DNA from: Burkholderia metallica
GTDB taxonomy: Bacteria > Pseudomonadota > Gammaproteobacteria > Burkholderiales > Burkholderiaceae
DNA length: 64,000 bases
Direction of reading: 5' to 3'
Assembly (NCBI RefSeq): GCF_902832845.1
Contig: NZ_CADFDB010000011.1
Span: 62,001 to 126,000, forward strand
The position numbers were made by a program, and so were the translations under genes. Of this stretch, positions 15,606 to 43,579 are shown piece by piece. Under the pieces are notes generated by a model. It worked only from the letters and a program-made list of their open reading frames with translations. It searched no databases and was not told the origin of the DNA. The first letter of the stretch is position 1; each line of letters opens with the position of its first letter.

Positions 15606-15638
15606 GCCCGGTCCCGGGTTGAATGCGTCGCGTGAATG

Positions 15639-16016: not shown

Positions 16017-16040
16017 GTCTGTCTCGGAATCGTGTAAGCG

Positions 16041-17060: not shown

Positions 17061-17073
17061 CGGGCGCTCCGCG

Positions 17074-28330: not shown

Positions 28331-28627
28331 ATGACGAACGACACCCTGTCCCGCGCCTTCGACCTGACCCGCGCGATGCAGTCGGCAGCCGACGCACGCG
28401 ACTGGGTGCGCGTCGCGGCCCTCGTCGACGAACGCTCGCCGCTGCTGATGAACCTGTCCGGCGAGCAGACGCCAGACGCGCTGGACCAGGTGCGGCAGAT
28501 CATGGCGATCGACGCGTCGATCACGGAGCATGCGCAGACCGACCGTGACCGCCTGGCTGCGGAATTTGCGCAGTCCCAGGAGCGGATCAAGGCCGCGAGC
28601 CAGTACCAGAAGGCCGGCATGCTGTGA
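28331..28627 (+). CDS. fliT: FliT-like flagellar chaperone
   Basis: A 98-residue, mostly helical acidic protein (RAFDLTRAMQSAADARDWVR, LVDERSPLLMNLSGEQTPDA, RLAAEFAQSQERIKAASQYQ). Position directly after fliD and its length fit FliT, the FliD export chaperone that can also antagonise FlhDC in enterobacteria. The sequence is only weakly like enterobacterial FliT, so the name rests on context and general pattern. It is 28 bases after fliD and ends at a strong terminator. Confidence 0.8.
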   Translation: MTNDTLSRAFDLTRAMQSAADARDWVRVAALVDERSPLLMNLSGEQTPDALDQVRQIMAIDASITEHAQTDRDRLAAEFAQSQERIKAASQYQKAGML

Positions 28628-28868: not shown

Positions 28869-31355
28869 TCACGCGTCCCGGGTCGCCGTCTCACCGGCCG
28901 CGTAGCGGGTCCACATGCCGTGCAGCGCGTCCTCGAGGTTGCGTGCGAAGCGCGACGCATCGCACAGCGGCGACGCCAGCGCGCGCTCGCGCAGCGTTGC
29001 ACGCAGCGTCGCCAGCCCGTCGCGGTCGCGCGCGAACGCGACGGCCTTCGCGAGGTACGCCGCCTCGTCTTCCGCGATCCATTCGCCCATGCCGGCCGCG
29101 TGCAGCAGGCTCTCGCAAATGTGCGTGACGAACCGGCTGCCCTTCATCCCGAGCACCGGCACGCCCATCCACAGCGCTTCGGCGGTAGTCGTGCCACCCG
29201 GGTACGGGAACGGGCTCAGCGCGATGTCGATGCGGTTATACGCGGCGAAGTACTCCGCACGCGGCGAACCGCCTTCGAGAATCAGCCGATCCGCGCCGAT
29301 GCCGTGCCGCGCGAAGCGCTCGAGCGTCGCGTGGTTCACGTCGCCGGCGCCGAGCTCATGGGCCTTCAGCAGCAGGCGCGCGTCCGGCAGCGCGTGCAAG
29401 ATGCGCGACCACAGCGCGACGACCTCGTCGCTGATCTTGATCAGCTTGCCGAAGCAGCCGAACGTGACGCCGCCATGAGTCGCCATCGGCAGCGGGCCGA
29501 CCGCGACATCGTACGGCGGCGGCGTGAAGCACAGGTAGCTGTCCGGCAGTCGCCACGGCCGTTCGGTGAAGTGATGCGCCTCGTCGGCCGGTAGCGTATA
29601 GGCATCGCCGATGAAATAGTCGATCGCGCGGCAACCGGTCGTTGCGAAGAATCCGAGCCAGCTCGCCTGCACCGGCGCGGGCTTGTGCCCGAAGATCGGC
29701 AGGCCGCTCCAGTTGGTATGGCCCGCCATATCGATCAGGATGTCGATGCCGTCGTCGCGAATCAGTTGCGCGGCCTCCTCGCGACCCAGGCTGACCACCT
29801 TCTTCCAGCTCGCGAAGTTCGGCCTGAGCCGCGTGGTCACGTCGTCCTCGCCGACGAACGTCACATAGGCGTGCGGCTCGATGCGCGACCGGTCGATCCG
29901 CGCGAGCACGCTTTCAAGGAAGATGCCGACCGGGTGCTGCCGCAGGTCGCCCGACACGAAGCCGACGCGCAGTGGCCGCCCCTGCGCCTGCGCGACGCGC
30001 TGCGCGCGGTCGTGCTCGAACGGATGCGCGTCGCGCTCGAGATGCTCGCCGTAGCGGCGCGCTTCAGCGACCCACTCCTGCGGTTCGAACGCGGGCGAGC
30101 TCGACATGTTGAACAGCATCCGCGAGTACGCGCGATGCAGGTCGTGCCGGATCGCCGAGCGGAACGCATCCAGCGCGCCGGCGAGATCCCCTTTCGCCCA
30201 CAGGATGTCGCCGAGCGTCATCTGGACCTTCAGCGGATCGATGCCGAGCTCCCGCGCGATCTCGGTGTGCTTCATCGCCTCGTCGAGCTTCTCGAGCCGA
30301 AACAGCGCGGCGGCAAGGTTGTGATGCGCGTCGGCATCGTCCGGGTTCAGGTCGATCGCATGCCGGTGGCTCAACTCCGCGGCGGCCAGCAAGTTGAGGT
30401 TGTGATACGCGAAGCCAAGGAAGTTGTATGCGTCGGCCAGTTCGGGATCAAGCTCGATCGCACGCCGGCACACTTGCACCGCCTCCCCGTATTCGCCCTG
30501 CTGGTTGCGCAAATCGCCGAGCCACGCCCATGCCTGTGCATGCGCGGGGTCGATCGCGACCGCCTGCTCGAGCAGTTCGAGCGCCTTGTCGAAATCGCCG
30601 ATACGCTGCAGCAGCCTTGCCAGTACGCAGTGCGCGTCCGCGTCGCCTGGATCGAGTCCCTCGCGCGCATGGTCGACCGCACCCCGCAGATCACCTGCCG
30701 CGCGCAGCGTCTCGCTCAGCCCCTGGTGCGCGACACGGAAGCCCGGTTGCAGCGAGATGGCGCGACGATAGGCATCCGCAGCATCGTCGAATTTCTCCTG
30801 CGCATGCAGCGCGTTGCCGAGATTGCAGTACGCATCCGCGTATTGCGGCTGGTGCGCGACCGCCTTGGCGTAGCTCGCCGCCGCCGCCTCGTGCTCGCCC
30901 AGATCCCGCAGCGCGTTGCCGAGGTTGTTGTACGCCTGCGCATAGCCGGGCCGCAGCTCGATCGCGCGCGCGCAGCTCTCCATCGCAGCCGCCGGCTCGC
31001 GCGCGTCGCGCAGCGCGTTGCCGAGGTTGTTGTGCGCTTCCGGATAGTCCGGCCGCAGCGCCACCGCGCGCCGGTAGTGCGCGATCGCGTCGTCGAGCCG
31101 GCCGCTTTCGCGCAGCATGTTGCCCAGGTTGTTGAAGTACGACGCGTCCGGCCGCTCGACGAGCGATTGCTCCATCAGTGCGAGCCCCGCGTCGTACTGC
31201 TTCAGCTGGCACGCGAGCAGCCCGAGGAAATGCAGCGCATCCGGCTGGCCCGGCTGCGCGGCGAGGATCGCGTCGTACAGCGTCTTCGCTTCCGCGAGAC
31301 GCCCCGCCTGATGATGCGCCAGCGCGGACTGCAGCGTGTCGTGGATATCGTTCAT
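28869..31355 (-). CDS. TPR and GT41 (SPINDLY/OGT-like) glycosyltransferase, copy 1
   Basis: An 828-residue protein. Residues 1-415 hold about eleven TPR units (for example EAHNNLGNALRDAREPAAA, AQAYNNLGNALRDLGEHEAA). Residues 460-820 form a GT41 catalytic domain like eukaryotic O-GlcNAc transferase: RPLRVGFVSGDLRQHPVG, DILIDMAGHTNWSGLPIFG, FGCFGKLIKISDEVVALWS with the likely diphosphate-binding Lys, and SPFPYPGGTTTAEALWMG. Such enzymes add a sugar to Ser/Thr. Position next to fliC-fliD-fliT points to flagellin as acceptor; a glycosyltransferase linked to the flagellin cluster in B. cenocepacia does this. The ATG at 31353-31355 overlaps the stop of copy 2. It is the last gene of a three-paralogue set. 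Confidence 0.9.
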   Translation of the reverse strand: MNDIHDTLQSALAHHQAGRLAEAKTLYDAILAAQPGQPDALHFLGLLACQLKQYDAGLALMEQSLVERPDASYFNNLGNMLRESGRLDDAIAHYRRAVALRPDYPEAHNNLGNALRDAREPAAAMESCARAIELRPGYAQAYNNLGNALRDLGEHEAAAASYAKAVAHQPQYADAYCNLGNALHAQEKFDDAADAYRRAISLQPGFRVAHQGLSETLRAAGDLRGAVDHAREGLDPGDADAHCVLARLLQRIGDFDKALELLEQAVAIDPAHAQAWAWLGDLRNQQGEYGEAVQVCRRAIELDPELADAYNFLGFAYHNLNLLAAAELSHRHAIDLNPDDADAHHNLAAALFRLEKLDEAMKHTEIARELGIDPLKVQMTLGDILWAKGDLAGALDAFRSAIRHDLHRAYSRMLFNMSSSPAFEPQEWVAEARRYGEHLERDAHPFEHDRAQRVAQAQGRPLRVGFVSGDLRQHPVGIFLESVLARIDRSRIEPHAYVTFVGEDDVTTRLRPNFASWKKVVSLGREEAAQLIRDDGIDILIDMAGHTNWSGLPIFGHKPAPVQASWLGFFATTGCRAIDYFIGDAYTLPADEAHHFTERPWRLPDSYLCFTPPPYDVAVGPLPMATHGGVTFGCFGKLIKISDEVVALWSRILHALPDARLLLKAHELGAGDVNHATLERFARHGIGADRLILEGGSPRAEYFAAYNRIDIALSPFPYPGGTTTAEALWMGVPVLGMKGSRFVTHICESLLHAAGMGEWIAEDEAAYLAKAVAFARDRDGLATLRATLRERALASPLCDASRFARNLEDALHGMWTRYAAGETATRDA
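30916..31312. repeat. Near-identical 397-base tract shared with GT41 copy 2
   Basis: Aligns without gaps to 33111-33507 (offset 2195) with about 10 mismatches by eye, roughly 97.5% identity. It covers the second to fifth TPR units near the N-terminus. Flanking parts of the two genes are much more diverged. Suggests recent duplication or gene conversion. Confidence 0.9.
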
Positions 31356-33550
31356 GCTTCCTGCTCCAAGTTCGTATAGCGTTGCCACATGGCGAGGAAC
31401 GCCGCTTCGAGATGCGCGGCGAACCGGCGCGCGTCGCACAACGGCGATGCGAGCAGCTGCGCGCGCAGCCCGGCGCGCAGCGCCGCGAGCTGCTCGCGAT
31501 CGCGCACCGCCGCGATCGCCTTCGCGACATAGGTGTCCTCGCCGTCAGCGACCCATTCGCCCATGCCCGCCGCGTGCAGCACGCTTTCGCAAATGTGCGT
31601 GACGAACCGGCTGCCCTTCATCCCGAGCACCGGCACGCCCATCCACAGCGCTTCGGCCGTGGTCGTGCCGCCCGGGTACGGAAACGGACTCAGCGCGACG
31701 TCGATGCGGTGATACGCGGCAAAGTATTCCGCGCGCGGCGAACCGCCCTCGAGGATCAGCCGGTCCGCGTCGATGCCATGCCGCGCGAAGCGCGCGGCGG
31801 TCGCGTCGCGCACGCCCTCGCGGCCGAGTTCATGCGCCTTGAGCAGCAGGCGCGCGTCCGGCAGTGTGTGCAGGATGCGCGACCACGCGCGCACGACGTC
31901 GTCGCCGATCTTCACGAGCTGGCCGAAGCAACCGAAGGTCGGATGGCCGCTCGCCGCCATCGGCAGCGGGCCGACCTCGACGTCGCAGGCCGGCGGCGTG
32001 AAGCACAGGAAGCTGTCGGGCAGCCGCCACGGCTTCTCGACGAAGTGATGCGCTTCGGCGTCCGGCAGCGTGTAGCGGTCGCCGATGAAGTAGTCGATCG
32101 CGTCGCAGCCGGTCGACGCGAAGAAGCCGAGCCAGCTCGCCTGCACCGGCGCGGGTTTCCAGCCGAACACGGGAAGCCCGCTCGACTGCGTATGGCCCGC
32201 GAGGTCGACGAGGACGTCGATTTCGTCGTCGTGAATCATTCGCGCGGCCGCCTCCGGACCCAGCGCGGCGATCGAGCGCCAGCCGTTCGCGTGCGGCTTC
32301 AGTTTCTCGGTGATCGCGTCCTCCTCGTCCGTGGTCGCGTACACGCGCAGGTCGATGCGCGTGCGCTCGAGGTGCGCCAGCACGCTTTCCAGGAAGATGC
32401 CGACCGGATGCAGGCGCAGGTCGCCGGACACGAAGCCGACGCGCAGCGGCCGCCCTTGTGCGCGCGCGTCCCGCTCGCGCGGGTCGTGCGCATAGCGCGT
32501 CGAACGCGCGGCCAGGTGCCGGCCGTAGCGCCGCGCGTCGGCCAGGTAGTCGGCGGGGTTCACGCAAGCGGACGCCGCCGCGCTGAACAGCAGCCGGTTC
32601 AGCACGGTCGCCGCGACGTCGTCGGCGTCGTCGCGCACCAGCGCCAGCGCATCGCGATACGCGTGGACCGCGGCATCGACGTTGCCCTGCGCGCGCAGGA
32701 TGTCGCCGAGATTGACGTGCATCAACACGGCCGGCGGGCCGGCCTGCAACGCCTGCCGGCAATACACGAGCGCCTCGTCGAGCCGCTGCAGCTTCAGCAG
32801 CACGACGGACAGGTTGTGGCACGCGCCGGCGTCCGCCGGATTCAGCGTGACAGCCGTGCGATGGCTGGCCTGCGCCGCGTCGAGCCGGTCCAGTCCGTGA
32901 TACGCGTTGCCCGCGTGGTTGTGCGCTTCGGCGAGGTTCGGCGCGAGCCGGATCGCGTCCTGCGCATGCGCGAGCGCCTCCGCGCAGCGCAGCTGCCGGT
33001 GACGCACGGCGCTCAAGTTCGCGTGGGCCATCGCCATCGACGGGTCCAGCTCGATCGCGCGACCGTAGTGCGACGCGGCGCGATCAAGGTCGCCCAGATC
33101 CTGCAACGCGTTGCCGAGGTTGTTGTACGCCTGCGCATAGCCGGGGCGCAGCTCGATCGCCCGCGCGCAGCTCTCCATCGCGGCCACCGGCTCGCGCGCG
33201 TCGCGCAGCGCGTTGCCGAGGTTGTTGTGCGCTTCCGGATAGTCCGGCCGCAGCGCCACCGCGCGCCGATAGTGCGCGATCGCGTCGTCGAGCCGGCCGC
33301 TTTCGCGCAGCATGTTGCCCAGGTTGTTGAAGTACGACGCGTCCGGCCGCTCGACGAGCGATTGCTCCATCAGCGCGAGTCCCGCGTCGTACTGCTTCAG
33401 CTGGCACGCCAGCAGCCCGAGAAAATGCAGCGCATCCGGCTGGCCCGGCTGCGCGGTGAGGATCGCGTCGTACAGCGTCTTCGCTTCCGCGAGACGCCCC
33501 GCCTGATGATGCTCGAGCGCCGCCTGCAATGCCTGTCCTGTTCCGTCCAT
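31352..33550 (-). CDS. TPR and GT41 (SPINDLY/OGT-like) glycosyltransferase, copy 2
   Basis: A 732-residue paralogue of the neighbouring gene. It has about eight TPR units in residues 1-285 and a GT41 catalytic domain from about 365 (RPLRVGFVSGDLRLHPVGIF, DVLVDLAGHTQSSGLPVFG, FGCFGQLVKIGDDVVRAWS, SPFPYPGGTTTAEALWMG). The Lys of the FGxLxKI motif is kept. The first 140 residues are almost identical to copy 1, the rest is diverged, and it has fewer TPRs. I chose ATG at 33548-33550 (GAG a few bases upstream) over a TTG six codons earlier. The stop overlaps the start of copy 1 (ATGA). Confidence 0.9.
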   Translation of the reverse strand: MDGTGQALQAALEHHQAGRLAEAKTLYDAILTAQPGQPDALHFLGLLACQLKQYDAGLALMEQSLVERPDASYFNNLGNMLRESGRLDDAIAHYRRAVALRPDYPEAHNNLGNALRDAREPVAAMESCARAIELRPGYAQAYNNLGNALQDLGDLDRAASHYGRAIELDPSMAMAHANLSAVRHRQLRCAEALAHAQDAIRLAPNLAEAHNHAGNAYHGLDRLDAAQASHRTAVTLNPADAGACHNLSVVLLKLQRLDEALVYCRQALQAGPPAVLMHVNLGDILRAQGNVDAAVHAYRDALALVRDDADDVAATVLNRLLFSAAASACVNPADYLADARRYGRHLAARSTRYAHDPRERDARAQGRPLRVGFVSGDLRLHPVGIFLESVLAHLERTRIDLRVYATTDEEDAITEKLKPHANGWRSIAALGPEAAARMIHDDEIDVLVDLAGHTQSSGLPVFGWKPAPVQASWLGFFASTGCDAIDYFIGDRYTLPDAEAHHFVEKPWRLPDSFLCFTPPACDVEVGPLPMAASGHPTFGCFGQLVKIGDDVVRAWSRILHTLPDARLLLKAHELGREGVRDATAARFARHGIDADRLILEGGSPRAEYFAAYHRIDVALSPFPYPGGTTTAEALWMGVPVLGMKGSRFVTHICESVLHAAGMGEWVADGEDTYVAKAIAAVRDREQLAALRAGLRAQLLASPLCDARRFAAHLEAAFLAMWQRYTNLEQEA
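33111..33507. repeat. Near-identical 397-base tract shared with GT41 copy 1
   Basis: Partner of the tract at 30916-31312; same strand, same frame in both genes, about 97.5% identical by eye. Confidence 0.9.
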
Positions 33551-33564
33551 CTCGTGTGCTCTGC

Positions 33565-33791
33565 TCAATAGGGATGCGGTTCGCGTCCGGAGTCGATCAG
33601 CCTGCCGCCGTGCCCGATCATCACGGTCGACGCCGCAATCCCATCGCGTGCCATCCCGACTACGGTGTCGCGCACGCGCGACCGGTCGGAACGACGATCA
33701 CGTCGGCCGGCGAGGTGTTCGGCGCGAGGAGCGCCATGTTCCGCTTGCCGCTGGCGTGGAAATGCCCACGCACGTCACGTCGCGAGCGGCC
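33565..33791 (-). pseudogene. Possible broken gene remnant between GT41 copies 3 and 2
   Basis: The spacer translates in two minus-strand frames into protein-like sequence. From the stop of copy 3: GHFHASGKRNMALLAPNTSP then ADVIVVPTG. After a frame change near 33670-33685: RVRDTVVGMARDGIAASTVM then IGHGGRLIDSGREPHPY, ending at a TGA at 33565, 14 bases before the ATG of copy 2. This looks like the C-terminal end of a lost, frameshifted gene of the same operon. I cannot name the family. The reading is by eye and could be chance in high-GC DNA, but the residue composition is unlike the usual Arg/Ala-rich shadows. Confidence 0.4.
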
Positions 33792-35579
33792 TCACACGGA
33801 TGCGCCCGGCGCGGCTTCGACGTGCTGCGCCCACATGCCGTGCAGTGCGTCCTCGAAGTGGCGCGCGAAGCGGGGCGCGTCGCACAGCGGCGACGCGAGC
33901 ACCTGTGCGCGCAGCGTCGTGCGCAGCGCCGCCAGCCCGGCGGGCGAGCCGACCTGCGCGACGGCCTTCGCGACATACGCGTCGTCGTCGTCCGCGATCC
34001 ACTCGGGCAGCCGCGCCGAATGCAGCAGGCTCTCGGCGATGTGCGACAGGAAGCGCTCGCCGCGCCGGCACAGAACGGGCACACCCATCCACAGCGCTTC
34101 GGCGGTCGTCGTGCCGCCCGGATACGGGAACGGGCTCAGCATCAGGTCGACGCGCCGGTACGCGGCCAGGTATTCGGCGCGCGGCGAGCGGCCTTCGAGG
34201 ATCAGGCGCTGCGCGTCGATGCCGTGCGCCGCGAAGCGCGCGGCAAGCGCCTGCTGCTCGCGCGGATCGTCGAGATGCTCCGCCTTCACGAACAGCTTCG
34301 CGCCCGCGACCGATTGCAGCACGCGCGACCAGACCGCGACGACGCGATCGGTGATCTTCGCGAGCTTGCCGAAATAGCCGAAGGTCGGATGGCCGTTCGC
34401 GAGCATCGGCAGCGCGCCGACGTCGACAGGCTCGGCCGGCGGCGTGAAGCACAGATAGCTGTCAGGCAGATGCCACGGCCGCTCGGTGAAATGCGCGGCC
34501 TCGGCGGGCGGCAGCACATGACGGTCGCCGATCACGTAGTCGATCGCGCGCACGCCGGTGCTCGCGAAATAACCGGGCCAGCTCGCCTGCAGCGGCGCGG
34601 GCTTCCACGCGAACAGCGGCAGGCGGTTGTAGACCGTGTGGCCCGCCGCGTCGAGCAGCACGTCGATGCGGTCCGCGCGGACACGCGCGGCGGCCGCTTC
34701 GTCGCTCAGACCGGCAATGCAGGTCCACGTCGCGAAGGCCGGCTTGATGCGGGCGGTCACGTCGTCCTCGACGTCGCGCGTCGGGTACGCATGCATCTCG
34801 ATCCGGTTCGCGTCGAGATGCTTCAGCATGCTCTCGATGAAATAGCCGACCGGATGCGCTTTCAGGTCGCCCGACACGATGCCGACCTTGAGCGGCCGCC
34901 CGGCGCGGGCGGTCAGGTCGACGAGCCAGTCCGTCCACGGCGTCGCGCACCGCGTGACGACTTCGTCGTAGCGCGCGGCCTCGGCGAGATAGGCGTCGTG
35001 GTCGAACGCTTCGCTGCAGTGGCTCGCGAACAGCAGGTTGCTGCGCGGCTCCGGCAGTTCGGGGCGCAGCGCGACTGCGTGCCGGTAAGCCTCGAGCGCG
35101 GCCGGAATCTCGTTCAGGTCGAAGAGCGCATTCGCAAGGTTGTTGTAGGCCTGGCCGTTGTCCGGCTTCAGCGCGATGGCCTGGCAGAACGCATCGACGG
35201 CCGCACGGGCGTCGCCGGCGAGCCGAAGCGCGTTGCCGAGGTTGTTGTACGCATCGACGTAGTCGGGTCGCAGCTCGATTGCGAGACGGAAGCATTCGGC
35301 GGCGGCGGCGTGACGGTTGTCCGCCTGCATCACGTTGCCGAGGTTGTAGTAGTACATCGCGTCCGGCCTGATCTCGATCGCCGCCATGATCAGGTCGGAT
35401 GCCTCCTGATAGCGCCCGTACTGATGGCCGACCAGGCCGAGGAGGTGAAGCGCGTCCGCGTGCCGGGGATCGCTGTCGAGGATCTGCCGGTACAGCGTCT
35501 CGGCCTCTTCCAGCCGGTCGGCCTGATGGTGCGCCAGCGCCTGTTCGATCGTGGCGGCGGCGGGGGAGGTGGGCATCAT
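33792..35579 (-). CDS. TPR and GT41 (SPINDLY/OGT-like) glycosyltransferase, copy 3
   Basis: A 595-residue paralogue, the shortest and most diverged of the three. About five TPR units lie in residues 1-190 (AYNNLGNALRLAGDARAAVD, AYNNLANALFDLNEIPAAL). The GT41 domain runs from about 228 to the end (RPLKVGIVSGDLKAHPVGYF, DVLLDAAGHTVYNRLPLFAW, FGYFGKLAKITDRVVAVWS, SPFPYPGGTTTAEALWMG). The catalytic-site pattern is intact. It is the first gene of the minus-strand set and may have its own acceptor or donor sugar. The promoter should lie in the 444-base gap upstream, shared with the divergent cassette. Confidence 0.9.
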   Translation of the reverse strand: MMPTSPAAATIEQALAHHQADRLEEAETLYRQILDSDPRHADALHLLGLVGHQYGRYQEASDLIMAAIEIRPDAMYYYNLGNVMQADNRHAAAAECFRLAIELRPDYVDAYNNLGNALRLAGDARAAVDAFCQAIALKPDNGQAYNNLANALFDLNEIPAALEAYRHAVALRPELPEPRSNLLFASHCSEAFDHDAYLAEAARYDEVVTRCATPWTDWLVDLTARAGRPLKVGIVSGDLKAHPVGYFIESMLKHLDANRIEMHAYPTRDVEDDVTARIKPAFATWTCIAGLSDEAAAARVRADRIDVLLDAAGHTVYNRLPLFAWKPAPLQASWPGYFASTGVRAIDYVIGDRHVLPPAEAAHFTERPWHLPDSYLCFTPPAEPVDVGALPMLANGHPTFGYFGKLAKITDRVVAVWSRVLQSVAGAKLFVKAEHLDDPREQQALAARFAAHGIDAQRLILEGRSPRAEYLAAYRRVDLMLSPFPYPGGTTTAEALWMGVPVLCRRGERFLSHIAESLLHSARLPEWIADDDDAYVAKAVAQVGSPAGLAALRTTLRAQVLASPLCDAPRFARHFEDALHGMWAQHVEAAPGASV

Positions 35580-36023
35580 GAGCTAAGTCGTCCTGGTAGC
35601 CAATACGGGATTCGAATCGCGGCCGGCTCCGCTGCGTCGGCGCACGCCTTCGCCTGCGGACGCACGCACCGACGGTCTCCGACGTGTCCGAATTCTCCTC
35701 GCGCACGCCGCGTTCCAATTTGGCGAGCAGGTGCTGGAATTGGTCGCTATTCCCGCTACTGCAAGCCGCACCCGCGGGTGCCCCGAATTCGCACCGGACC
35801 ACCCGCGAATCCATCGAAATGCGGGGTGAAACCACCCGCTAATCCGACATTCGATCCTGGCGGCGCTCGCTAGACTCGATTCCGAAAGATGACCGGATTG
35901 CACCGTGCGGACAGCCGCGACGCGTGCGGGCCCGGTTGCCGCACCGGATGCCGGCCGCGCACGCGCCCCCGGTCCGCCACGGCACTTCGTTCGGTATCAC
36001 TCATAGTCCCTGGAGCCTTTTGT
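35580..36023. other. Divergent promoter region between the GT41 set and the sugar cassette
   Basis: A 444-base spacer between oppositely transcribed units. No coding sequence is evident; repeated ACCCGC-containing motifs lie in the middle (see 35768-35844). A possible plus-strand -10 (TAGACT near 35872) has no good -35. Confidence 0.45.
35768..35844. promoter_or_regulatory. Clustered ACCCGC repeats, possible operator
   Basis: A perfect 14-base palindrome GCACCCGCGGGTGC (35768-35781) is followed by ACCACCCGCGAATCC (35797-35811) and ACCACCCGCTAATCC (35830-35844). The last two match at 14 of 15 positions and start 33 bases apart, about three helical turns. This would suit cooperative binding by one regulator of both divergent units. 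The protein is unknown. Confidence 0.4.
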
Positions 36024-36806
36024 ATGCACGAGTCATCCATCATCACCAACTCGAACGACGACCAGCTCGCCGCGCGCCGCGAACTGTTCGACCTGCTGCA
36101 CGCGTATCCCGCGACCCCCGAGGAACTGGAACGCTCGCTCGGCCTGTTCGTGCGCGGTTCGCTGCTCGCGCGGTTCCTGGCGACCTTCGAGGTGTATCAG
36201 AAGATCGTGCCGCTACCGGGCTCGATCCTCGATCTCGGCACATGGCGCGGGCAGACCGCGGTGCTGTGCGAGAACTTCCGCGCGATCCTCGAGCCGCTGA
36301 ACTTCCAGCGCCGCATTCACGCGTTCGATACGTTCACCGGCTACGCAGGCTTCTCCGAGGACGACTCGCGCGACCGCAAGCTGTTCTCCGACGGCACCTA
36401 TTCGGTGGCGAGCGGCTACGCGGACCTGCTGCGCAAGCTGCTGTCGCTGCACGAGCGCAACAACGCGATGGGCCACGTGAATGGCAAGCACCGCGTATGG
36501 GAAGGCGACTGCCGCGACACGTTGGCGGCGTTCGACGAAGCGCACCCGGGCGAGACGATCGCGCTTGCATGGTTCGACCTGAACGTGCCGGGCCCGACGG
36601 AGCAGGCGTTCGAAGCGGTGCTCCAGCGCCTGGTGCCGGGCGGCGTGGTCGCGGTGTGGCAACTGATGCGCGGCCATCAGGCCCCTGCGGAAGGCATGCA
36701 CTACCTGCACAAGGTGCTCGGCAAGTACCCCCACCAGATTCACCGGACGCAGGCGTATCCGTCGCTCTGCTACATGACGTTCCCCGAAGGCGGACAGGGG
36801 CGCTAA
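36024..36806 (+). CDS. TylF/MycF-like SAM-dependent methyltransferase
   Basis: A 260-residue class I methyltransferase. The SAM motif is ILDLGTWRGQTAVLCENF (68-85) and the acidic FDTFTGYAGFSEDDS at 101-115 is typical of macrocin-O-methyltransferase (TylF)-like enzymes that methylate sugar hydroxyls. A later LAWFDLNVPGPTEQAF and LVPGGVVAVWQL complete the fold. It probably methylates the sugar made by this cassette. The ATG at 36024 fits the family start; the stop overlaps the next ATG by one base (TAATG), indicating coupling. Confidence 0.78.
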   Translation: MHESSIITNSNDDQLAARRELFDLLHAYPATPEELERSLGLFVRGSLLARFLATFEVYQKIVPLPGSILDLGTWRGQTAVLCENFRAILEPLNFQRRIHAFDTFTGYAGFSEDDSRDRKLFSDGTYSVASGYADLLRKLLSLHERNNAMGHVNGKHRVWEGDCRDTLAAFDEAHPGETIALAWFDLNVPGPTEQAFEAVLQRLVPGGVVAVWQLMRGHQAPAEGMHYLHKVLGKYPHQIHRTQAYPSLCYMTFPEGGQGR

Positions 36807-38191
36807 TGAAGATCGCGATCCTCGGCAACGGCATTCTCGGGCTGATGACGGCCCGGGCATGGCAACGCGCGGACCCGACTGTCGAACTCGTGATCGTCGG
36901 CCCGGCACTGCGCCCGGGCTCGGCGACGCGCGCGGCGGCGGCGATGCTCAACTCATTCACCGAACTCGAAGGCGACTCGCTCGGCACGCCGCTCGACCGC
37001 TTCAAGTTCGAGCTGAGCCGCGCGGCGACCGCGGCCTGGCCGGGCGTATTTGCCGAGATCTGCACGCCGGCGCGCGAGGTCGCCCACGGGTTCGGCACGT
37101 ACGTGCTCAACAACGCGGCGACCGACGCGCTCGACGACGAGAACTTCGCGGCTGTGAAGCGCTTCTGTCGTGAATTCGAGGAACCCTGCGAGGCGGTCGA
37201 TCCGTCAAGCATCCCGAACTATCACCCCGACCCGCGCTATCGCGCGTTGAACGCGCTCTACCTGAAGCGTGAGGGCTGGGTCAACCCGAAGCAGTTTCTC
37301 GACGCGCTGACGGCATCCGTCGCGCAGACGGGCAACACGACGCTCGTCGACGCCCAGGTCGAGCGGCTCGACATCGCCGGCGGGCGCGTCGTCGCGGCGC
37401 GGCTCTCCGACGGCAGCACGCTCGACGCGGACCGCTTCGTCCTGTGCAATGGCGCGAACCTCGGCCAGCTGCTGCGCGCGAGCGCGCCCGAGCTGCCGGT
37501 ACAGCGGCTGTTCTACGGCATCGGCATTTCGATCGAGCTGCAGAGCGCGGAAAACGTGCACACGCACTGCATCCGCACCACCAACCGCGGCCTCGCATGC
37601 GGCGTCTATTCGGCGCCGTACGGGCCGGACCGCACGCTGATCGGCGCCAGCAACTACATCAGCCCGGTGCCGATCGATCACGGCCACGTCGGCAGCGCGT
37701 ACTCGCTGCTGAAAGCGGCAATGGACCAGATCAACAGCAAGTTCTACCGCGCGAACCTCGTCAACGTGAACGTCGGCTGGCGGCCCATGACGTCCGACCT
37801 GTATCCGCTGTTCGGCGAAACCAGCGTGCGGGACCTGTGGATCCTCGGCGGCACCAAGCGGGACGGCTTCCACCTGTCGCCGGTGCTGTGCCGCGACCTC
37901 GTCGCCGCGATGCGCGGCGAGCCGATCGACCCGCGTTACGCGGCGCTTGCGCCCGAGCGGCCGCTGATCCGCAACATGTCGCGCGAGGCCGCGATCGCGA
38001 AGACCGTGCGGCACCAGCTCAACGCTGCGTACCAGCACGACTTCGAGCCGGCGAGGAACCGCATGGTCGAGCAGTTGCAGCGCTCGATGCGCACGGACCT
38101 CGAAGCGCTGCACGACCGGATCGGCGCGACCGACTGGGGCATTCCGCCCGAGCTGGTCGACATGTACCGGTACGGCCACATCCCGGCATGA
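36806..38191 (+). CDS. DAO-type FAD-dependent oxidoreductase
   Basis: A 461-residue protein. The N-terminal dinucleotide motif MKIAILGNGILGLMTARAW binds FAD. Later segments (DRFVLCNGANLGQLL, then WRPMTSDLYPLFGETSVRDL and WILGGTKRDGFHLSPVLCRD) follow the D-amino-acid-oxidase/glycine oxidase fold. The GGTKRDGFHLSP segment corresponds to the FAD-contacting C-terminal motif. It may oxidise an amine or amino-sugar intermediate; substrate unknown. It is coupled to both neighbours (TAATG before, ATGA after), so it belongs to the same operon. Confidence 0.82.
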   Translation: MKIAILGNGILGLMTARAWQRADPTVELVIVGPALRPGSATRAAAAMLNSFTELEGDSLGTPLDRFKFELSRAATAAWPGVFAEICTPAREVAHGFGTYVLNNAATDALDDENFAAVKRFCREFEEPCEAVDPSSIPNYHPDPRYRALNALYLKREGWVNPKQFLDALTASVAQTGNTTLVDAQVERLDIAGGRVVAARLSDGSTLDADRFVLCNGANLGQLLRASAPELPVQRLFYGIGISIELQSAENVHTHCIRTTNRGLACGVYSAPYGPDRTLIGASNYISPVPIDHGHVGSAYSLLKAAMDQINSKFYRANLVNVNVGWRPMTSDLYPLFGETSVRDLWILGGTKRDGFHLSPVLCRDLVAAMRGEPIDPRYAALAPERPLIRNMSREAAIAKTVRHQLNAAYQHDFEPARNRMVEQLQRSMRTDLEALHDRIGATDWGIPPELVDMYRYGHIPA

Positions 38192-38910
38192 GCGGCACGC
38201 CCATGGAAGCGGTTGCGAAGCGGGTGGCGATCGTCCAGTCGAACTACATCCCGTGGAAGGGCTATTTCGACCTGATCGCCGCCAGCGACGAATTCATCCT
38301 GTACGACGACGCGCAGTACACGCGCCGCGACTGGCGCAACCGCAACCAGATCAAGACGCCGCAGGGCGTGCAATGGCTGAGCGTGCCGGTGAAGGTGAAG
38401 GGCAAGTATCTCCAGACGATTCGCGAAACCGAGATCGACGGCGACGACTGGGCGCCGCAGCACTGGAAGCGGCTGCAGCAGAACTACGCGCGCGCGCCGC
38501 ACTTCGCGGGCTATGCGGACGCGCTTGAAGCGCTCTATCTCGGCCGCCGCTACGACACGCTCAGCGAGCTGAACCGCGCGCTGCTGATGTGGATCAACCA
38601 GCAGTTGGGAATCGACACGCGCATCTCGTCGTCGTCGGACTACACGCTGAACGGCGACCGCACCGAGAAGCTGTTGAACCTGTGCATGCAGGCGGGCGCG
38701 ACCGAGTACCTGTCCGGCCCGTCCGCCCGCTGCTACCTGGACGAGAACCTGTTCGCGGACGCGAACATCGCGGTGCGCTGGTTCGACTACCCCGCCTATC
38801 CCGAGTACCCGCAGCAGTGGGGCGACTTCGTGCATGGCGTCACCGTGCTCGACGTGTTGTTCAACTGCGGCCCCGACGCTCGCGAGTACGCGCTCTGTCG
38901 GGGCGCGTGA
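38188..38910 (+). CDS. WbqC family protein
   Basis: A 240-residue member of the WbqC family, common in O-antigen and surface sugar gene clusters. It opens VAIVQSNYIPWKGYFDLIAA and continues DEFILYDDAQYTRRDWRNRN, IKTPQGVQWLSVPV, and ends around FVHGVTVLDVLFNCGPDA. Biochemical function is not established for most members; some are proposed to act in amino-sugar modification. It starts inside the oxidoreductase stop (ATGA). A 140-base gap to the next gene holds only a doubtful 25-codon frame. Confidence 0.88.
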   Translation: MSGTPMEAVAKRVAIVQSNYIPWKGYFDLIAASDEFILYDDAQYTRRDWRNRNQIKTPQGVQWLSVPVKVKGKYLQTIRETEIDGDDWAPQHWKRLQQNYARAPHFAGYADALEALYLGRRYDTLSELNRALLMWINQQLGIDTRISSSSDYTLNGDRTEKLLNLCMQAGATEYLSGPSARCYLDENLFADANIAVRWFDYPAYPEYPQQWGDFVHGVTVLDVLFNCGPDAREYALCRGA

Positions 38911-39050
38911 CATGTGCCGATGAACGCATCCCGTCACGCAAGCCTGCACGACGACGGCCCTGCGCGCTCGCGCGGCGCCGTCCGGCAGGACGCCTGAACG
39001 GCGCCGCGCCCGCGCCGCCGATCGTCCGTCACTTTACGAGGAGCCTGACC

Positions 39051-40208
39051 ATGTTCGGCCCACCCAACCTCGACTGCATTCCGTTCGGCCGCCCGTTCGT
39101 GGTCGGCAAGGAGCTCTACTACATCGCGAAAGCGGTCGAGCAGGGCGGCCTGGCCGGCGACCAGGCGTTTACGAAGCTCTGCCACCGCTGGCTGGAAGCG
39201 CGCATCGGCTGTCAGCGCGCGCTGCTCACGCACTCGTGCACGGCCGCGCTCGAGATGGCCGCGATCCTCGCCGACGTGCAGCCCGGCGACGAAGTGATCA
39301 TGCCGTCCTACACGTTCGTGTCGACCGCCAACGCGTTCGTGCTGCGCGGCGCGACGCCGGTGTTCGTCGACATCCGCCGCGACACGCTGAATCTTGACGA
39401 GATGCAGATCGCCGCCGCGATCACCAAGCGCACGCGCGCGATCGTGCCGGTGCACTACGCGGGCGTCGCCTGCGACATGGACGTGATCGGGCAGCTCGCG
39501 GCGGACCACGACCTGTGGGTGATCGAGGACGCCGCCCAGGCGCTGCAGTCGACGTGGAACGGCAAGCCGCTCGGCAGCTTCGGCCACCTCGCGTGCCTCA
39601 GCTTCCACGAGACCAAGAACGTGATCTCGGGCGAAGGCGGCGCGCTGCTGGTCAACGACCCGCGCCTCGTCGAGCGCGCGGAGATCATCCGCGAGAAGGG
39701 CACCAACCGCAGTCAGTTCTTCCGCGGGCAGGTGGACAAGTACACCTGGGTCGACGTCGGCTCGTCGTTCCTGCCGGGCGAGCTGATCGCCGCGTTCCTG
39801 TACGCGCAGTTCGAACATGCGGACGTGATCACCGCGCAGCGGCGCGCGACCGTGCAGCGCTACCAGGACGCGCTGCAGCCGCTGCACGCGGACCAGCTGA
39901 TCGAGCTGCCAGCGATTTCGCTCGCCGAGCGCGGCAACGGCCACATGTTCTATTTCCTCGCACGCGACCTCGCCGAACGCACCGAGCTGCTGCAGCAGAT
40001 CCGCGCAGTGGGCGTGAACGCGGTGTTCCACTACGTGCCGCTGCACAGTTCGCCGGCCGGCCAGCGCTACGGGCGCTGCGGGTCCGACATGGCGGTGACG
40101 GACCTCGTCGCCGACCGGCTCGTCCGGCTGCCGCTGTACCACGACATGACCGAAGCCGAACAGGATCGCATCCTCGACGTGGTCTTCGATTTCTACCGCA
40201 CCCGATAA
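39051..40208 (+). CDS. DegT/WecE-type sugar aminotransferase
   Basis: A 385-residue PLP-dependent aminotransferase of the DegT/DnrJ/EryC1/StrS family. It closely resembles WecE (dTDP-4-amino-4,6-dideoxygalactose transaminase): GKELYYIAKAVEQGGLAGDQ near the start, LLTHSCTAALEMAAILADV, WVIEDAAQAL with the PLP-binding Asp160, and the Schiff-base Lys189 in SFHETKNVISGEGGALL. It should convert a dTDP-4-keto-6-deoxy sugar to a 4-amino-4,6-dideoxy sugar. That agrees with the 4-amino-4,6-dideoxyglucose reported on B. cenocepacia flagellin, although the epimer cannot be told here. GAGGAG lies seven bases before the ATG. Confidence 0.9.
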   Translation: MFGPPNLDCIPFGRPFVVGKELYYIAKAVEQGGLAGDQAFTKLCHRWLEARIGCQRALLTHSCTAALEMAAILADVQPGDEVIMPSYTFVSTANAFVLRGATPVFVDIRRDTLNLDEMQIAAAITKRTRAIVPVHYAGVACDMDVIGQLAADHDLWVIEDAAQALQSTWNGKPLGSFGHLACLSFHETKNVISGEGGALLVNDPRLVERAEIIREKGTNRSQFFRGQVDKYTWVDVGSSFLPGELIAAFLYAQFEHADVITAQRRATVQRYQDALQPLHADQLIELPAISLAERGNGHMFYFLARDLAERTELLQQIRAVGVNAVFHYVPLHSSPAGQRYGRCGSDMAVTDLVADRLVRLPLYHDMTEAEQDRILDVVFDFYRTR

Positions 40209-40210
40209 CG

Positions 40211-43200
40211 ATGACGATTCCCAAACCTGGCCTGGCGCACGGCGGTTCGCGCATCTTTACGCGACTCGACCACCCGTACTACATATTCGCGCCGAATTTC
40301 CGGCAAACCTCCGGCGGGATCCGCGCGATGCACTACCTGTGCCACGCGCTGAACCTGCTCGGCCACGAAGCGTACGTCTACACGCAGGTCGTGCATCCCG
40401 ACCTGCGCACGCCGCCGCTGACCAACGACATCGTGCAGGCGCACGCCCGCGCGAATCGCAGCCCGATCGTCGTCTACCCGGACGTCGTCACCGGCAATCC
40501 GTTCAACGCGCGCTGCGTCGTGCGCTACCTGCTGGCCGAGCCCGGCCGCATCAACGGCGAACCGATCACCCTGCAGCCGGACGACCTCATCTTCACGTTC
40601 GGGCCGTCGCTGGTGCCCGAAGAATGGAAGGCGGACATGTTGCGCATGCCGCTGGTCGACACGCGCATCTTCAACAGCGACGGTGTCGACGACGCCCGCC
40701 GCAACGGCACGGCCGTCTTCATCAATCGCCATCTGCGGCGCGGCGGCACGCTGCATCCGGTCACCGCCGATTCGATCGAAATCTCGACCCGCGTGCCGGA
40801 ACGCTCGGCGCAGGAACTCGCGGCGCTGTTCCGACAGGTCGAGTGCGTGTACACGTACGAATGGTCCACCGCCGTGTTCGAAGCGCTGCTGTGCGGCTGC
40901 CCGGTCGTGTGCATCATGAATGACGCGTCGCTGCCGGAGCCGTTCCGGTGGGTGATGGACGGCAAGGGCATTGCGTGGGGGCTCGACGAACACGAGATCG
41001 CCCACGCGAAGGCCACCGTTCACGAAGCGCGCAGCGTCTACCTGAAGGAAGAGGAGACGTTCTGGCAGCAGTTGCGGAACTTCGTCGAGCGGACTCAGGC
41101 CCACGCGGACAAGCTGGATGCGCAGGCTGTCGCGACGGGCGCCGCCGCCCAGGGACAGCCCGCGTCCGCGCCGCGCTCGTGCATCGCGGTCGTCACCGCC
41201 GAACCGGCCGGCCACGCGCGTGCCAGCCTGCGCTTCGCGCAGCCGTTCGCGCGGCTGGACCGCGAATGGGCGCTGACTTTCCCTGTCACGCCAGCCGGTA
41301 TCGATCCCGACGCGCTGCAGCGCGCGGACCTGATCGTGCTGCAGGGCGACACGCCGGGCCTGCTGTCCGCCGCCACGCTGGAGCACCTGTTCTCGCTCGG
41401 CAAGCCGGTCGTCCTCGACATCGACGTGCCGCTCGACACGCTGCTCGCCGACCTCCCCGGCGCGGCCGACAACGCGCGCCGCAAGGCGGGCATCCGCAGC
41501 GCCGTGCAGCGCGCGCATGCGCTCGTCGTGCCGTCGGAAGCGCTGGTGCGGCAGTACCGTCATGTCAACGCAGCGGTCCACGTGCTGCCGACCGGCGTCG
41601 ATCTCGAGCGTCTGCACCGCACGGCCCCCGGCGTGCGCGACCACGTGAACCTCGCGGTTTCCGGCACCGGTCTCGACGGCGCGCGTCTCGAGCAGGTCCG
41701 CCACGCGCTGGCCGAGCTCCGCCGCCGGTTTCCGGGGAAGCTCCGGGTGTCGTTCGTCGGCGCGGCGCTGCCGGCCGGCTGGGACCGCGAACCGGACGTC
41801 ACGCTGATCGCGCAGCCTGCCCCTTACGACAGCTACGCCGACGCGCTGAAGCGCGCGGACCTCGACATCGCGCTGGTCGCGGCACCGGTCACGTTGCACG
41901 ACGATGCGCCGCCGCGCACATGGCTCGAATGCTCGGCGGCCGGCGCGGCCACGGTGCTCGTCGCCACGCCGGCGGAAGGCTGCTCGGTCGTCCACGGCCT
42001 CACGGGCTGGCTCGTCGCCGACGCCGCCGACGCGTGGGTCGACGCGATCGCGCACCTGATCGAGCATCCGCAAACCCGCGCGCAACTCGCCGCGGCCGCG
42101 CAGGATGCGATCCGCGCGCAGCACGACATCGGCCGCAACGCCGCGCGCCACGGTGCGCTGTACGCGCGGCTGCTGGCGGAGAACCGGACGCTGGCGCCCG
42201 TCGCCGCGACTGCGGACACCGCACCGCGCCGCAAGCGCCTGATCGTGTATTCGATCGATCCGGACGCATGCGCGTCGTCGCGAATTCGCCTCACGCTGCC
42301 CTTCGGTCTGCTGAACGACGAATGGGAACTCGTCCCGGGCATCCGGGACGGCCAGATCGACAGCAGCGTGCTGGCCACGGCCGACGCCATCCTGCTGCAC
42401 CGGCTGACGCCCGGCCTGCTGACGGGCAACGACCTGTACACGATCTTCAAGCATGAAAAGCCGGTGATCTACGAGACCGACGACCTGCTGACCGACCTGC
42501 CGCCCGCACATCCGCTCGCCGCGCAAGGCGGGATGGCCCGCGCGGGGATCGAGCTCATGCTGCGCAACGCAGACGCCGTGATCGTATCCACGCCGTTCAT
42601 CGCCAGCCGCTACCGGCTGTCGCACCCGCGCGTTCACGTGCTGCCCGACAGCGTGGACTTCGACCGGTTCTACCGCCCCGTGACGGCGCGCGGCGGCGAC
42701 TGCGTGACGATCGGCATCGCCGGCGCGTCGCTGCGCGCCGACAACTTCGCGCTCGTCGACGCGGCGCTGCAGGCGATCTGCGCGCGCCATCCCGGCAAGG
42801 TCAGGGTGAGTTTCGTCGGCGCGGACGTCCCGCCGGGCTGGGCCGGCCATCCGGCCGCCGGGTGCGAGCCCGAGCTTCACGACTACGACGCGCACGCACA
42901 ACGCCTGCCGGAACGGCGCTGGGACATCGCGCTGCTGCCGCTCGCCGACCACGACTACAACGCCGGCACGAGCACGATCCAGTGGCAGGAATACGCGGCG
43001 GCCGGCATCCCCTCGATCGTCAGCGACCGGCCAGCCTATCGCTTCGCGCTGCACGACGGCTGCGACGGCCTGCTGGTCCCGGATGCGCCGCAGGCCTGGG
43101 TCGACGCGCTCGACCGGCTGATCGCGAACCCGGCGCTGCGCCGCGGGCTCGCGCGCACGGCGCAGGCGAAGGTCCGCAAGCATCACGCGCTGCAGCAGGC

Positions 43201-43579
43201 GCTGCCGCGCTATCGCCATGTGTATCAGCAGTGCATCGACAAAGGCGCTGTCGGCAACCAGCCCGGCCGGCCGGATGCGCCGATCCCCGGCGCGCTGATC
43301 CTGGACGCCGAGGGCGACCTCGACAAGGTCCGGCTGAGCCTGCAGGAAATCGCAAGGCGGCCGGAACAGGATCTGCTGGCGGTCGTGCTGACCACGTCGC
43401 AGGCACCGCTGCCCGAATGGACCGACACGGTGCGCTACCTGCACGCGCCCGCTCACGAGTACACGGCCACCGTCGAGCAGCTCTGCGCACTGCCGGCGTT
43501 CGACTGGACGCTGATCGTCGAGGCGGGCGACGGGCGTGCTGCGCAGGCACGAACGCCCGCCGATGCCGCGATCGCGTAG
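40211..43579 (+). CDS. Multi-module glycosyltransferase (1122 residues)
   Basis: A 1122-residue protein made of three glycosyltransferase-like parts. Part 1 (about 1-310) begins HPYYIFAPNFRQTSGGIRAM and includes the acidic TYEWSTAVFEALLCGCPVV. Parts 2 (about 322-660) and 3 (about 674-1015) are clearly related: both carry a TPGLL-x-LF/IF-KPV segment, VHVLP before a VD, GK(L/V)RVSFVGA and WVDA at the end. Part 3 keeps a GT-B-like donor region (STIQWQEYAAAGIPSIVSDR), whereas part 2 is weaker there and may be inactive. About 100 residues follow. It starts two bases after the aminotransferase. Probably it builds the surface or flagellar glycan; exact linkage unknown. Confidence 0.85.
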   Translation: MTIPKPGLAHGGSRIFTRLDHPYYIFAPNFRQTSGGIRAMHYLCHALNLLGHEAYVYTQVVHPDLRTPPLTNDIVQAHARANRSPIVVYPDVVTGNPFNARCVVRYLLAEPGRINGEPITLQPDDLIFTFGPSLVPEEWKADMLRMPLVDTRIFNSDGVDDARRNGTAVFINRHLRRGGTLHPVTADSIEISTRVPERSAQELAALFRQVECVYTYEWSTAVFEALLCGCPVVCIMNDASLPEPFRWVMDGKGIAWGLDEHEIAHAKATVHEARSVYLKEEETFWQQLRNFVERTQAHADKLDAQAVATGAAAQGQPASAPRSCIAVVTAEPAGHARASLRFAQPFARLDREWALTFPVTPAGIDPDALQRADLIVLQGDTPGLLSAATLEHLFSLGKPVVLDIDVPLDTLLADLPGAADNARRKAGIRSAVQRAHALVVPSEALVRQYRHVNAAVHVLPTGVDLERLHRTAPGVRDHVNLAVSGTGLDGARLEQVRHALAELRRRFPGKLRVSFVGAALPAGWDREPDVTLIAQPAPYDSYADALKRADLDIALVAAPVTLHDDAPPRTWLECSAAGAATVLVATPAEGCSVVHGLTGWLVADAADAWVDAIAHLIEHPQTRAQLAAAAQDAIRAQHDIGRNAARHGALYARLLAENRTLAPVAATADTAPRRKRLIVYSIDPDACASSRIRLTLPFGLLNDEWELVPGIRDGQIDSSVLATADAILLHRLTPGLLTGNDLYTIFKHEKPVIYETDDLLTDLPPAHPLAAQGGMARAGIELMLRNADAVIVSTPFIASRYRLSHPRVHVLPDSVDFDRFYRPVTARGGDCVTIGIAGASLRADNFALVDAALQAICARHPGKVRVSFVGADVPPGWAGHPAAGCEPELHDYDAHAQRLPERRWDIALLPLADHDYNAGTSTIQWQEYAAAGIPSIVSDRPAYRFALHDGCDGLLVPDAPQAWVDALDRLIANPALRRGLARTAQAKVRKHHALQQALPRYRHVYQQCIDKGAVGNQPGRPDAPIPGALILDAEGDLDKVRLSLQEIARRPEQDLLAVVLTTSQAPLPEWTDTVRYLHAPAHEYTATVEQLCALPAFDWTLIVEAGDGRAAQARTPADAAIA

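What the first reader, a model, noticed from the sequence alone, without database searches (positions are those of the whole stretch)
28869..43579. Expanded flagellin-linked glycosylation locus: three GT41 paralogues facing an amino-sugar cassette
Directly after fliC-fliD-fliT lie three TPR plus O-GlcNAc-transferase-like genes, and divergent to them a coupled cassette: methyltransferase, FAD oxidoreductase, WbqC, WecE-like aminotransferase and a 1122-residue glycosyltransferase. B. cenocepacia flagellin is known to carry a 4-amino-4,6-dideoxyglucose derivative added by a glycosyltransferase linked to the flagellin cluster. The set here has three OGT-like enzymes and a methylating/oxidising cassette, so it could make a different or mixed glycan, or glycosylate more than flagellin. 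This is the best candidate in the window for an undescribed system.
Basis: partly seen in the sequence, partly recalled or inferred. Interest (0 to 1): 0.78.

Follow-up and report, generated by a model that had tools for sequence, protein, structure and literature searches.

The report
Swappable flagellin glycosylation locus in Burkholderia
A Burkholderia species carries, next to its unusually short flagellin gene, three look-alike protein sugar-attaching enzymes and a gene set for a rare methylated amino sugar, and this whole block seems to be traded between species like a flagellar serotype.

Summary
It is not the B. cenocepacia locus: that genome has 384-aa FliC, one GT41 gene, a 31% identical aminotransferase and no MT1. 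Here FliC has 272 aa, about 45 of them between the terminal domains. Of 65 Burkholderia species, 26 have short FliC; 24 of these have six or more GT41 matches (about three genes; 0 of the other 39) and 21 carry MT1 (0 of 39). FliC class changes 22 times on a gyrB tree between flanking genes that stay recognisable, so flagellin and glycosylation genes seem to be exchanged together. WecE is an equivalog match (dTDP-Fuc4N, not Qui4N); MT1 matches CalS11 (dTDP-deoxysugar 3-O-methyltransferase); the FAD enzyme's closest solved relative is Orf1/N-formimidoyl fortimicin synthase, which uses glycine to put an amidine on aminoglycoside amines. Its N-O-S cysteine is conserved, but a glutamate needed for transfer is glutamine in the window and 20 of 20 other carriers. 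Best prediction: a methylated Fuc4N cap with a glycine-derived N-substituent on flagellin. No glycan was measured.

The parts
25751..25778 (+). sigma-28 (FliA)-like promoter site upstream of fliC; the only match to the strict pattern in the window, so none before the GT41 genes or the cassette
   Evidence: 1 match, mean 0.12 in shuffles, 12 of 100 shuffles with a match; consensus recalled
25872..26690 (+). fliC, 272 aa, 27.7 kDa predicted; flagellin N and C domains about 45 residues apart
   Evidence: (PF00669, PF00700)
26884..28302 (+). fliD, 472 aa
   Evidence: FliD_N, FliD_C
28331..28627 (+). fliT-like small ORF, 98 aa
   Evidence: named by its position after fliD; no family search was run on it
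28869..31355 (-).
31352..33550 (-). OGT2: TPR + GT41, 732 aa; stop overlaps the OGT1 start by 4 nt; TPR residues 31-150 93-100% identical to OGT1 per 30-residue block
33792..35579 (-). OGT3: TPR + GT41, 595 aa
35580..36023 (.). divergent intergenic region between OGT3 and the cassette
36024..36806 (+). MT1: sugar O-methyltransferase-like, 260 aa; best solved relative CalS11 (TDP-rhamnose 3'-O-methyltransferase), E 2e-29
36806..38191 (+). FAD enzyme, 461 aa; best solved relatives are N-formimidoyl fortimicin A synthase / Orf1 (E 8e-55, residues 3-414); Cys265 = Orf1 C281
38188..38910 (+). WbqC family protein, 240 aa; no convincing solved relative
38911..39050 (.). place of a second methyltransferase (MT2, about 218 aa) present in 17 of the 20 other carriers; absent from the window, G018, G048 and G059
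39051..40208 (+). WecE: dTDP-4-amino-4,6-dideoxygalactose (Fuc4N) transaminase, 385 aa
   Evidence: NF008687, 609.6 bits, cut-off 375; entries 6blg/4piw, E about 1e-137
40211..43579 (+). large glycosyltransferase, 1122 aa, with at least two GT4-type domains; no solved relative at E<=1e-4
45758..46642 (+). cytochrome c gene, right flank of the swapped segment; found within the stretches held in 31 of 64 other species

Best explanation
This is an exchangeable flagellin-type locus. A segment between a left flank (an S21-like ribosomal protein gene) and a right flank (cytochrome c) carries a short flagellin, its cap protein, cytosolic TPR-GT41 enzymes and a sugar cassette, and these tend to move together. 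Proposed mechanism: the TPR domains of OGT1-3 bind FliC in the cytoplasm and the GT41 domains O-glycosylate Ser/Thr before export. The cassette makes a dTDP-activated cap sugar: RmlB (encoded elsewhere) gives dTDP-4-keto-6-deoxyglucose, WecE gives dTDP-Fuc4N, MT1 O-methylates it (3-O by analogy with CalS11), and the Orf1-like FAD enzyme, perhaps with WbqC, puts a glycine-derived group on the 4-amine (N-formimidoyl or related, possibly on a glycyl spacer). The 1122-aa GT adds this sugar to the glycan, as VioT does in Pseudomonas syringae. Shown by computation: genes, motifs, family matches, co-occurrence, exchange. Inferred: acceptor, order of steps, position of the methyl, nature of the N-substituent, role of WbqC, donor of the OGTs.
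For: Short FliC and six or more PF13844 pieces (about three or more GT41 genes): 24 of 26 against 0 of 39 species; MT1: 21 of 26 against 0 of 39 (one of the 39, G050, has FliC undetermined). On a gyrB tree of 64 species FliC class changes 22 times and the cassette 16 times; in 8 independent pairs on well-supported branches GT41 number follows FliC class in 6.9 on average and goes against it in 0, the cassette in 6.4 and 0. MT1 is CalS11-like. WecE passes the equivalog cut-off and B. cenocepacia's aminotransferase does not. The FAD enzyme scores 190 bits with Orf1 but at most 21 bits with the 25 other DAO loci taken from its own genome. Orf1 C281, R342, R368 and H419 are kept in 20 of 20 other carriers (residue roles from PMC10156733, passages). 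The viosamine island parallel (vioA, vioM, 1173-aa VioT) is from PMC3927599, passages. Two RmlB matches pass the cut-off in the genome.
Against: No glycan or protein was measured. Orf1's E426 is Gln in the window and in 20 of 20 other carriers; in Orf1 the E426Q mutant kept glycine oxidation but lost product formation, so the chemistry may differ. Orf1's H284, Y294, E312, F316 and A278 are also changed. The subfamily model TIGR02379, which the window's WecE also passes, is described as a D-glucose (Qui4N) transaminase, against NF008687's galactose; the galacto product of E. coli WecE is established knowledge, not tested here. No FliA-type site was found before the OGTs or the cassette. WbqC has no known function here. 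G012 has short FliC and six GT41 pieces with the cytochrome c flank close behind and no MT1, so the GT41 array does not need the cassette. Two species with short FliC (G009, G016) have one GT41 gene, and two Caballeronia loci with 274-aa FliC show none in the flank held. The tree is one gene with SH-aLRT support only.
Confidence: 0.6

Rival explanations
1. Same general locus, but the N-substituent is an ordinary acyl group and the FAD enzyme has another role, such as supplying an oxidised precursor or oxidising the sugar or its N-acyl group.
For: E426 of Orf1, needed for transfer, is Gln in 20 of 20 other carriers; P. syringae flagellin carries an N-(3-hydroxy-1-oxobutyl) amino sugar, B. cenocepacia's a similar one (recalled).
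Against: No family match in the cassette points to an acyltransferase, acyl carrier or ketoacyl gene, unlike the viosamine island; WbqC is the one unassigned gene. The FAD protein is far closer to Orf1 than to other DAO enzymes.
Confidence: 0.25
2. The cassette serves O-antigen or capsule and only sits beside the flagellar genes.
For: WecE is an enterobacterial common antigen type enzyme and WbqC is named after O-antigen work (recalled); no FliA site before the cassette.
Against: MT1 is in the fliD region in 20 of 21 carriers, the 21st being split by contig ends, and in 0 of 39 species with another or undetermined FliC class; it changes together with FliC across the species tree.
Confidence: 0.08
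3. It is a minor allele of the characterised B. cenocepacia flagellin system and makes the same Qui4N derivative.
For: Same position after fliC-fliD-fliT; both have TPR-GT41 and DegT-family aminotransferase genes.
Against: Aminotransferases 31% identical and in different families (WecE equivalog against DesI-like below its cut-off); GT41 about 32-34%; B. cenocepacia G007 has no MT1 match in its genome and no FAD, WbqC or large GT match in the flank held; FliC 272 against 384 aa.
Confidence: 0.05
4. OGT1-3 each modify different proteins, so the locus is a wider protein glycosylation system.
For: Three diverged GT domains; TPR arrays differ outside the shared stretch.
Against: OGT1 and OGT2 share a nearly identical TPR stretch; GT41 number and short FliC change together.
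Confidence: 0.08

Closest known systems
FlmG of Caulobacter (TPR + GT-B flagellin glycosyltransferase; PMC7591256, passages read)
   Same: TPR domain binds flagellin and a GT-B domain glycosylates it; 596 aa, like OGT3 (595 aa).
   Different: FlmG modifies flagellins with pseudaminic acid; here three to four GT41 genes stand beside a dTDP-deoxyamino sugar cassette. FlmG's own sequence was not compared.
Flagellin glycosylation locus of B. cenocepacia (Hanuszkiewicz 2014; paper not held, glycan recalled; locus seen as L151)
   Same: TPR-GT41 gene after fliT, DegT-family aminotransferase, same flanking site in the related G030.
   Different: 384-aa FliC, one GT41 gene, DesI-like rather than WecE-type aminotransferase, no MT1; no FAD, WbqC or large GT match in the flank held.
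Viosamine island of Pseudomonas syringae (PMC3927599, passages read)
   Same: Aminotransferase + methyltransferase + a large transferase (VioT 1173 aa; here 1122 aa) that caps flagellin glycans with a methylated 4-amino-4,6-dideoxy sugar.
   Different: N-substituent made there by acyl genes (vioS, vioB, vioR, acp); here FAD enzyme + WbqC; viosamine (Qui4N) there, Fuc4N predicted here. Sequences not compared.
Orf1 / N-formimidoyl fortimicin A synthase (PMC10156733, abstract and passages read)
   Same: 190-bit match over residues 3-414; 461 aa, longer than glycine oxidases as Orf1 is; N-O-S cysteine and glycine-binding arginines conserved.
   Different: E426 is Gln and several acceptor- and active-site residues are changed; antibiotic biosynthesis there, flagellin locus here.

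Membership tests
TPR-GT41 flagellin O-glycosyltransferase (FlmG-like) | N-terminal TPR + C-terminal GT41/GT-B domain | tested here: met
   all three over the Pfam cut-off
TPR-GT41 flagellin O-glycosyltransferase (FlmG-like) | intact GT41 active-site motifs | tested here: met
   alignment with SPINDLY and human OGT (OGT1 only); which residues are catalytic is recalled
TPR-GT41 flagellin O-glycosyltransferase (FlmG-like) | binds and glycosylates flagellin | not testable with these tools
   only co-occurrence with short FliC
B. cenocepacia flagellin glycosylation locus | orthologous FliC, TPR-GT41 and aminotransferase | tested here: not met
   FliC 272 against 384 aa, aminotransferase 31%, GT41 32-34%
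WecE (dTDP-Fuc4N transaminase) | score above the curated cut-off | tested here: met
   609.6 against 375 bits (NF008687, equivalog), 576.7 against 434.85 (TIGR02379, subfamily; its description says D-glucose)
WecE (dTDP-Fuc4N transaminase) | makes the galacto product | not testable with these tools
   needs an enzyme assay
Orf1 / N-formimidoyl synthase | overall homology, closer than to generic glycine oxidases | tested here: met
   E 8e-55 against 5e-11 for a glycine oxidase
Orf1 / N-formimidoyl synthase | N-O-S forming cysteine C281 | tested here: met
   Cys265 in the window and the same in 20 of 20 other carriers
Orf1 / N-formimidoyl synthase | glycine-binding R342 and R368 | tested here: met
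   20 of 20
Orf1 / N-formimidoyl synthase | E426, needed for group transfer | tested here: not met
   Gln in 20 of 20 and the window; so it is called Orf1-like, not a member
CalS11-type dTDP-deoxysugar O-methyltransferase | full-length homology to CalS11 | tested here: met
   E 2e-29, residues 13-250 of 260
P. syringae-type viosamine island | N-acylation genes vioS, vioB, vioR, acp | tested here: not met
   no such family match among the cassette genes

The most novel reading that the evidence does not exclude
A bacterial flagellin carries an amidine-bearing sugar: 3-O-methyl-4-(N-formimidoyl)amino-4,6-dideoxygalactose, or its formimidoyl-glycyl form. It would be made by an antibiotic-type, glycine-consuming FAD enzyme working through a cysteine N-O-S adduct, and inherited in a serotype-like block that swaps flagellin and glycan together across Burkholderia. 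The ten searches of the held papers listed no title or abstract beginning that describes this; most subscription papers are not held.
Probability: 0.3. Interest if true: 0.78.

Novelty: new variant of a known kind. Interest (0 to 1): 0.58.

Why it matters
It turns a vague 'amino-sugar cassette' into a testable pathway with predicted masses. It suggests that flagellin length class, the number of GT41 enzymes and the sugar chemistry are inherited as one exchangeable unit in Burkholderia, a flagellar counterpart of O-antigen serotypes. It also suggests that chemistry known from aminoglycoside antibiotics was borrowed for a protein glycan. Because species with the GT41 array but no MT1 (G012) and carriers with one or two methyltransferases exist, natural diversity already supplies comparison strains.

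Tried and rejected
Same locus as B. cenocepacia: rejected by class, identity and gene content. Cassette widespread outside the genus: not seen. In a 299-genome family sample MT1 matches outside Burkholderia occur in 8 genomes, the best at E 4.9e-36 (32% identity; shorter, weaker hits up to 37%), and the four of those loci that I fetched hold none of the other cassette genes. FAD at E<=1e-40 in 1 of 398 phylum genomes and at E<=1e-14 in 1 of 300 order genomes, the window's own in both; these samples are sparse and the tool scored only up to four or five candidates a genome, so a rarer relative could be missed. Broken or decayed GT41 copies: rejected. MT2 moved elsewhere in the genome: only weak hits; in the 64 fetched regions one species without the cassette (G033, L061) also gives an MT2 match at E<=1e-5. 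Sigma-28 control of the cassette: no site by the strict pattern. The first gyrB tree had 20 rows on the wrong strand and was thrown away; one search replaces it. A first tblastn with fliC and fliT in the wrong frame was redone; only its other rows are used. Literature searches for WbqC gave nothing on function in their listings, and WbqC matched no solved structure (two chance-level hits). The B. dolosa paper gave no flagellin size. My note counted 21 of 64 other MT1 carriers; the right count is 20 (corrected).
Full report
Observation. FliC is short: 272 aa, with the N- and C-terminal flagellin domains about 45 residues apart, so there is little room for outer domains. The three TPR proteins score 147, 140 and 116 bits with GT41 (cut-off 25) and keep the histidine, GHT, lysine and GGTTTAEAL motifs. 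PF13844 gives six pieces in the whole genome, two for each of these three genes. OGT1 is best read from the ATG at 31355; the GTG start runs into OGT2 on the same strand. OGT1 and OGT2 are 93-100% identical in TPR residues 31-150, third codon positions 87-100%; the next seven blocks (OGT1 residues 151-460) are 30-57% identical and the GT domains vary from 33 to 93%. That looks like recent gene conversion or duplication of a binding module.

Which class of locus. I fetched the fliC-fliD region of 64 other species. FliC falls into three length classes: 272-283, 384-389 and 472-529 aa (G050 undetermined there). Of 65 species including the window, 26 are short. Six or more PF13844 pieces (about three or more GT41 genes) are found in 24 of these 26 and in 0 of the other 39. 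MT1 is found in 21 of 65, all with 272-274 aa FliC; a 22nd weak hit (G035, E 5.8e-4) is not a carrier. MT1 lies in the fliD region in 20 of the 21; in G045 fliD and MT1 are on two contigs, with GT41 genes on both. FAD, WbqC, WecE and the large GT are beside MT1 in 20 of 20 other carriers; in nine of them only the first about 450 residues of the GT align well (66-67%). B. cenocepacia NCTC13227 (L151, G007) has a 384-aa FliC, a 780-aa TPR-GT41 protein, an aminotransferase 31% identical and no MT1 match.

Exchange. On a gyrB tree (64 species, 2433 columns, SH-aLRT only) FliC class changes 22 times, short FliC 17 times and the cassette 16 times. In 8 independent pairs on starred branches the GT41 number follows FliC class in 6.9 on average, against it in 0 (median p 0.016); the cassette follows in 6.4, against in 0 (median p 0.031). 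The S21-like gene was found in 60 of 64 regions and the cytochrome c gene in 31 of 64, 9 of them carriers; most other stretches end before it could come, and in carrier G043 it was not met in the 12 kb further read. Inside the locus there is a second level of exchange. MT1, FAD and WbqC of G011, G036, G039, G043 and G053 are 84-89% identical to the window at DNA level, although the neighbours OGT3 and WecE are 97-98%. In G048 and G059 fliD is 83-84% and MT1 and FAD are 93-96%. The window, G018, G048 and G059 lack MT2, which 17 of the 20 other carriers have. MT2 has no close copy elsewhere in the window's genome.

Chemistry. WecE passes the curated equivalog cut-off (609.6 against 375 bits) and matches solved WecE-type entries at E about 1e-137; E. 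coli WecE makes the galacto sugar Fuc4N (established knowledge), although the subfamily model TIGR02379, also passed, is labelled D-glucose. The B. cenocepacia enzyme scores best with DesI, below its cut-off, which fits its recalled gluco product. MT1's best solved relative is CalS11, a TDP-rhamnose 3'-O-methyltransferase (E 2e-29, residues 13-250). The FAD protein's best solved relatives are the N-formimidoyl fortimicin A synthase / Orf1 entries (190 bits; a glycine oxidase gets 45 bits). As a control, of 65 DAO places in the window's genome I took the 26 best loci, one of them the cassette gene: the best of the other 25 gets 21 bits with it. Orf1 uses glycine, FAD and a Cys281 N-O-S adduct to put an N-formimidoyl or N-iminoacetyl group on aminoglycoside amines (PMC10156733, abstract and passages). 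C281, R342, R368 and H419 are kept and E426 is Gln, Y294 Leu, in 20 of 20 other carriers; H284 is Tyr, E312 Gly and F316 Ser or Thr in 19 of 19 read; A278 is Gly in the window. C281A/S and E426Q mutants of Orf1 made no product, while C281A and E426Q still oxidised glycine. I therefore call the enzyme Orf1-like and not an N-formimidoyl synthase. In the BD-12 pathway a Fem-like transferase first adds glycine to the amine; whether WbqC plays such a part is a guess. No family match in the cassette points to N-acylation. MT2's match to solved methyltransferases is weak.

Nearest working analogue and what is known in the genus. The viosamine island of P. syringae has an aminotransferase, a methyltransferase, a 1173-aa transferase VioT and acyl genes, and caps flagellin glycans with a methylated N-acyl 4-amino sugar (PMC3927599, passages). 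The present cassette has the same logic with another N-modification module and another predicted stereochemistry. FlmG (PMC7591256, passages) is the nearest analogue of the GT41 enzymes. For OGT1, SPINDLY and then human OGT score best among solved structures, so the donor of the OGTs is open. Flagellin glycosylation in Burkholderia is itself known: a review lists glycans of 2 x 291 Da for B. pseudomallei and 342 Da for B. thailandensis flagellin (PMC3958885, passages), and B. cenocepacia flagellin is said to be glycosylated (PMC4905959, PMC5987112, passages); the primary papers are not held.

Wider distribution. Among the named loci, 14 records outside the Burkholderia set that I compared have FliC of 272-276 aa (Paraburkholderia, Trinickia, Caballeronia and one titled Burkholderia sp. 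E7m39); 12 of the 14 hold a GT41 gene at least 42% identical to OGT1, and the two without are Caballeronia (flanks of 10 kb only). None of the 14 shows MT1 or FAD in those flanks; L122 has a partial WecE-like match (45%) and L120 a WbqC-like one (28%). G012 has short FliC and six GT41 pieces, the cytochrome c flank close behind and no MT1. So short flagellin with GT41 genes is wider than the cassette.

Verdict. A real, bounded, exchangeable flagellin glycosylation locus; a new variant of a known kind, with one element (the Orf1-like enzyme) that would be surprising if it does what its homology suggests. Nothing here was measured on protein or glycan.

Noticed in passing
L092 (G064) 12376-17467: A species with 92% identical FliD and six GT41 pieces has, before the cytochrome c flank, a different set of genes: a class I methyltransferase, a small DXD glycosyltransferase and an M78 peptidase-like gene among them.
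   Followed up: partly
window 31352-33550 and 28869-31355: OGT1 and OGT2 share a nearly identical TPR stretch (residues 31-150), also at third codon positions, which points to gene conversion between the paralogues.
   Followed up: partly
L121, L123 (Caballeronia): 274-aa flagellin beginning MLNINTNTLS without a match to OGT1-3 in the 10 kb flanks held.
   Followed up: no
L151 15709-19901 (B. cenocepacia): Beyond the aminotransferase lie a 657-aa TPR protein with a weak GT9-like end and a 670-aa protein with a TIGR04222 membrane domain.
   Followed up: no
PMC5773237, discussion passage: The paper says that B. dolosa fliC mutants did not differ from wild type in cytokine production; B. dolosa LMG 18943 carries this locus type (G013).
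   Followed up: no
G001 C63 and G057 C60: PF13844 matches of about 142 bits in a 1271-aa open frame on contigs other than the fliD contig, a different kind of GT41 protein.
   Followed up: no
L283, L285, L286, L288-L291, L293: In eight or more carriers the large GT aligns with the window's only over its first about 450 residues, so its C-terminal GT domain differs between sub-types of the cassette.
   Followed up: no
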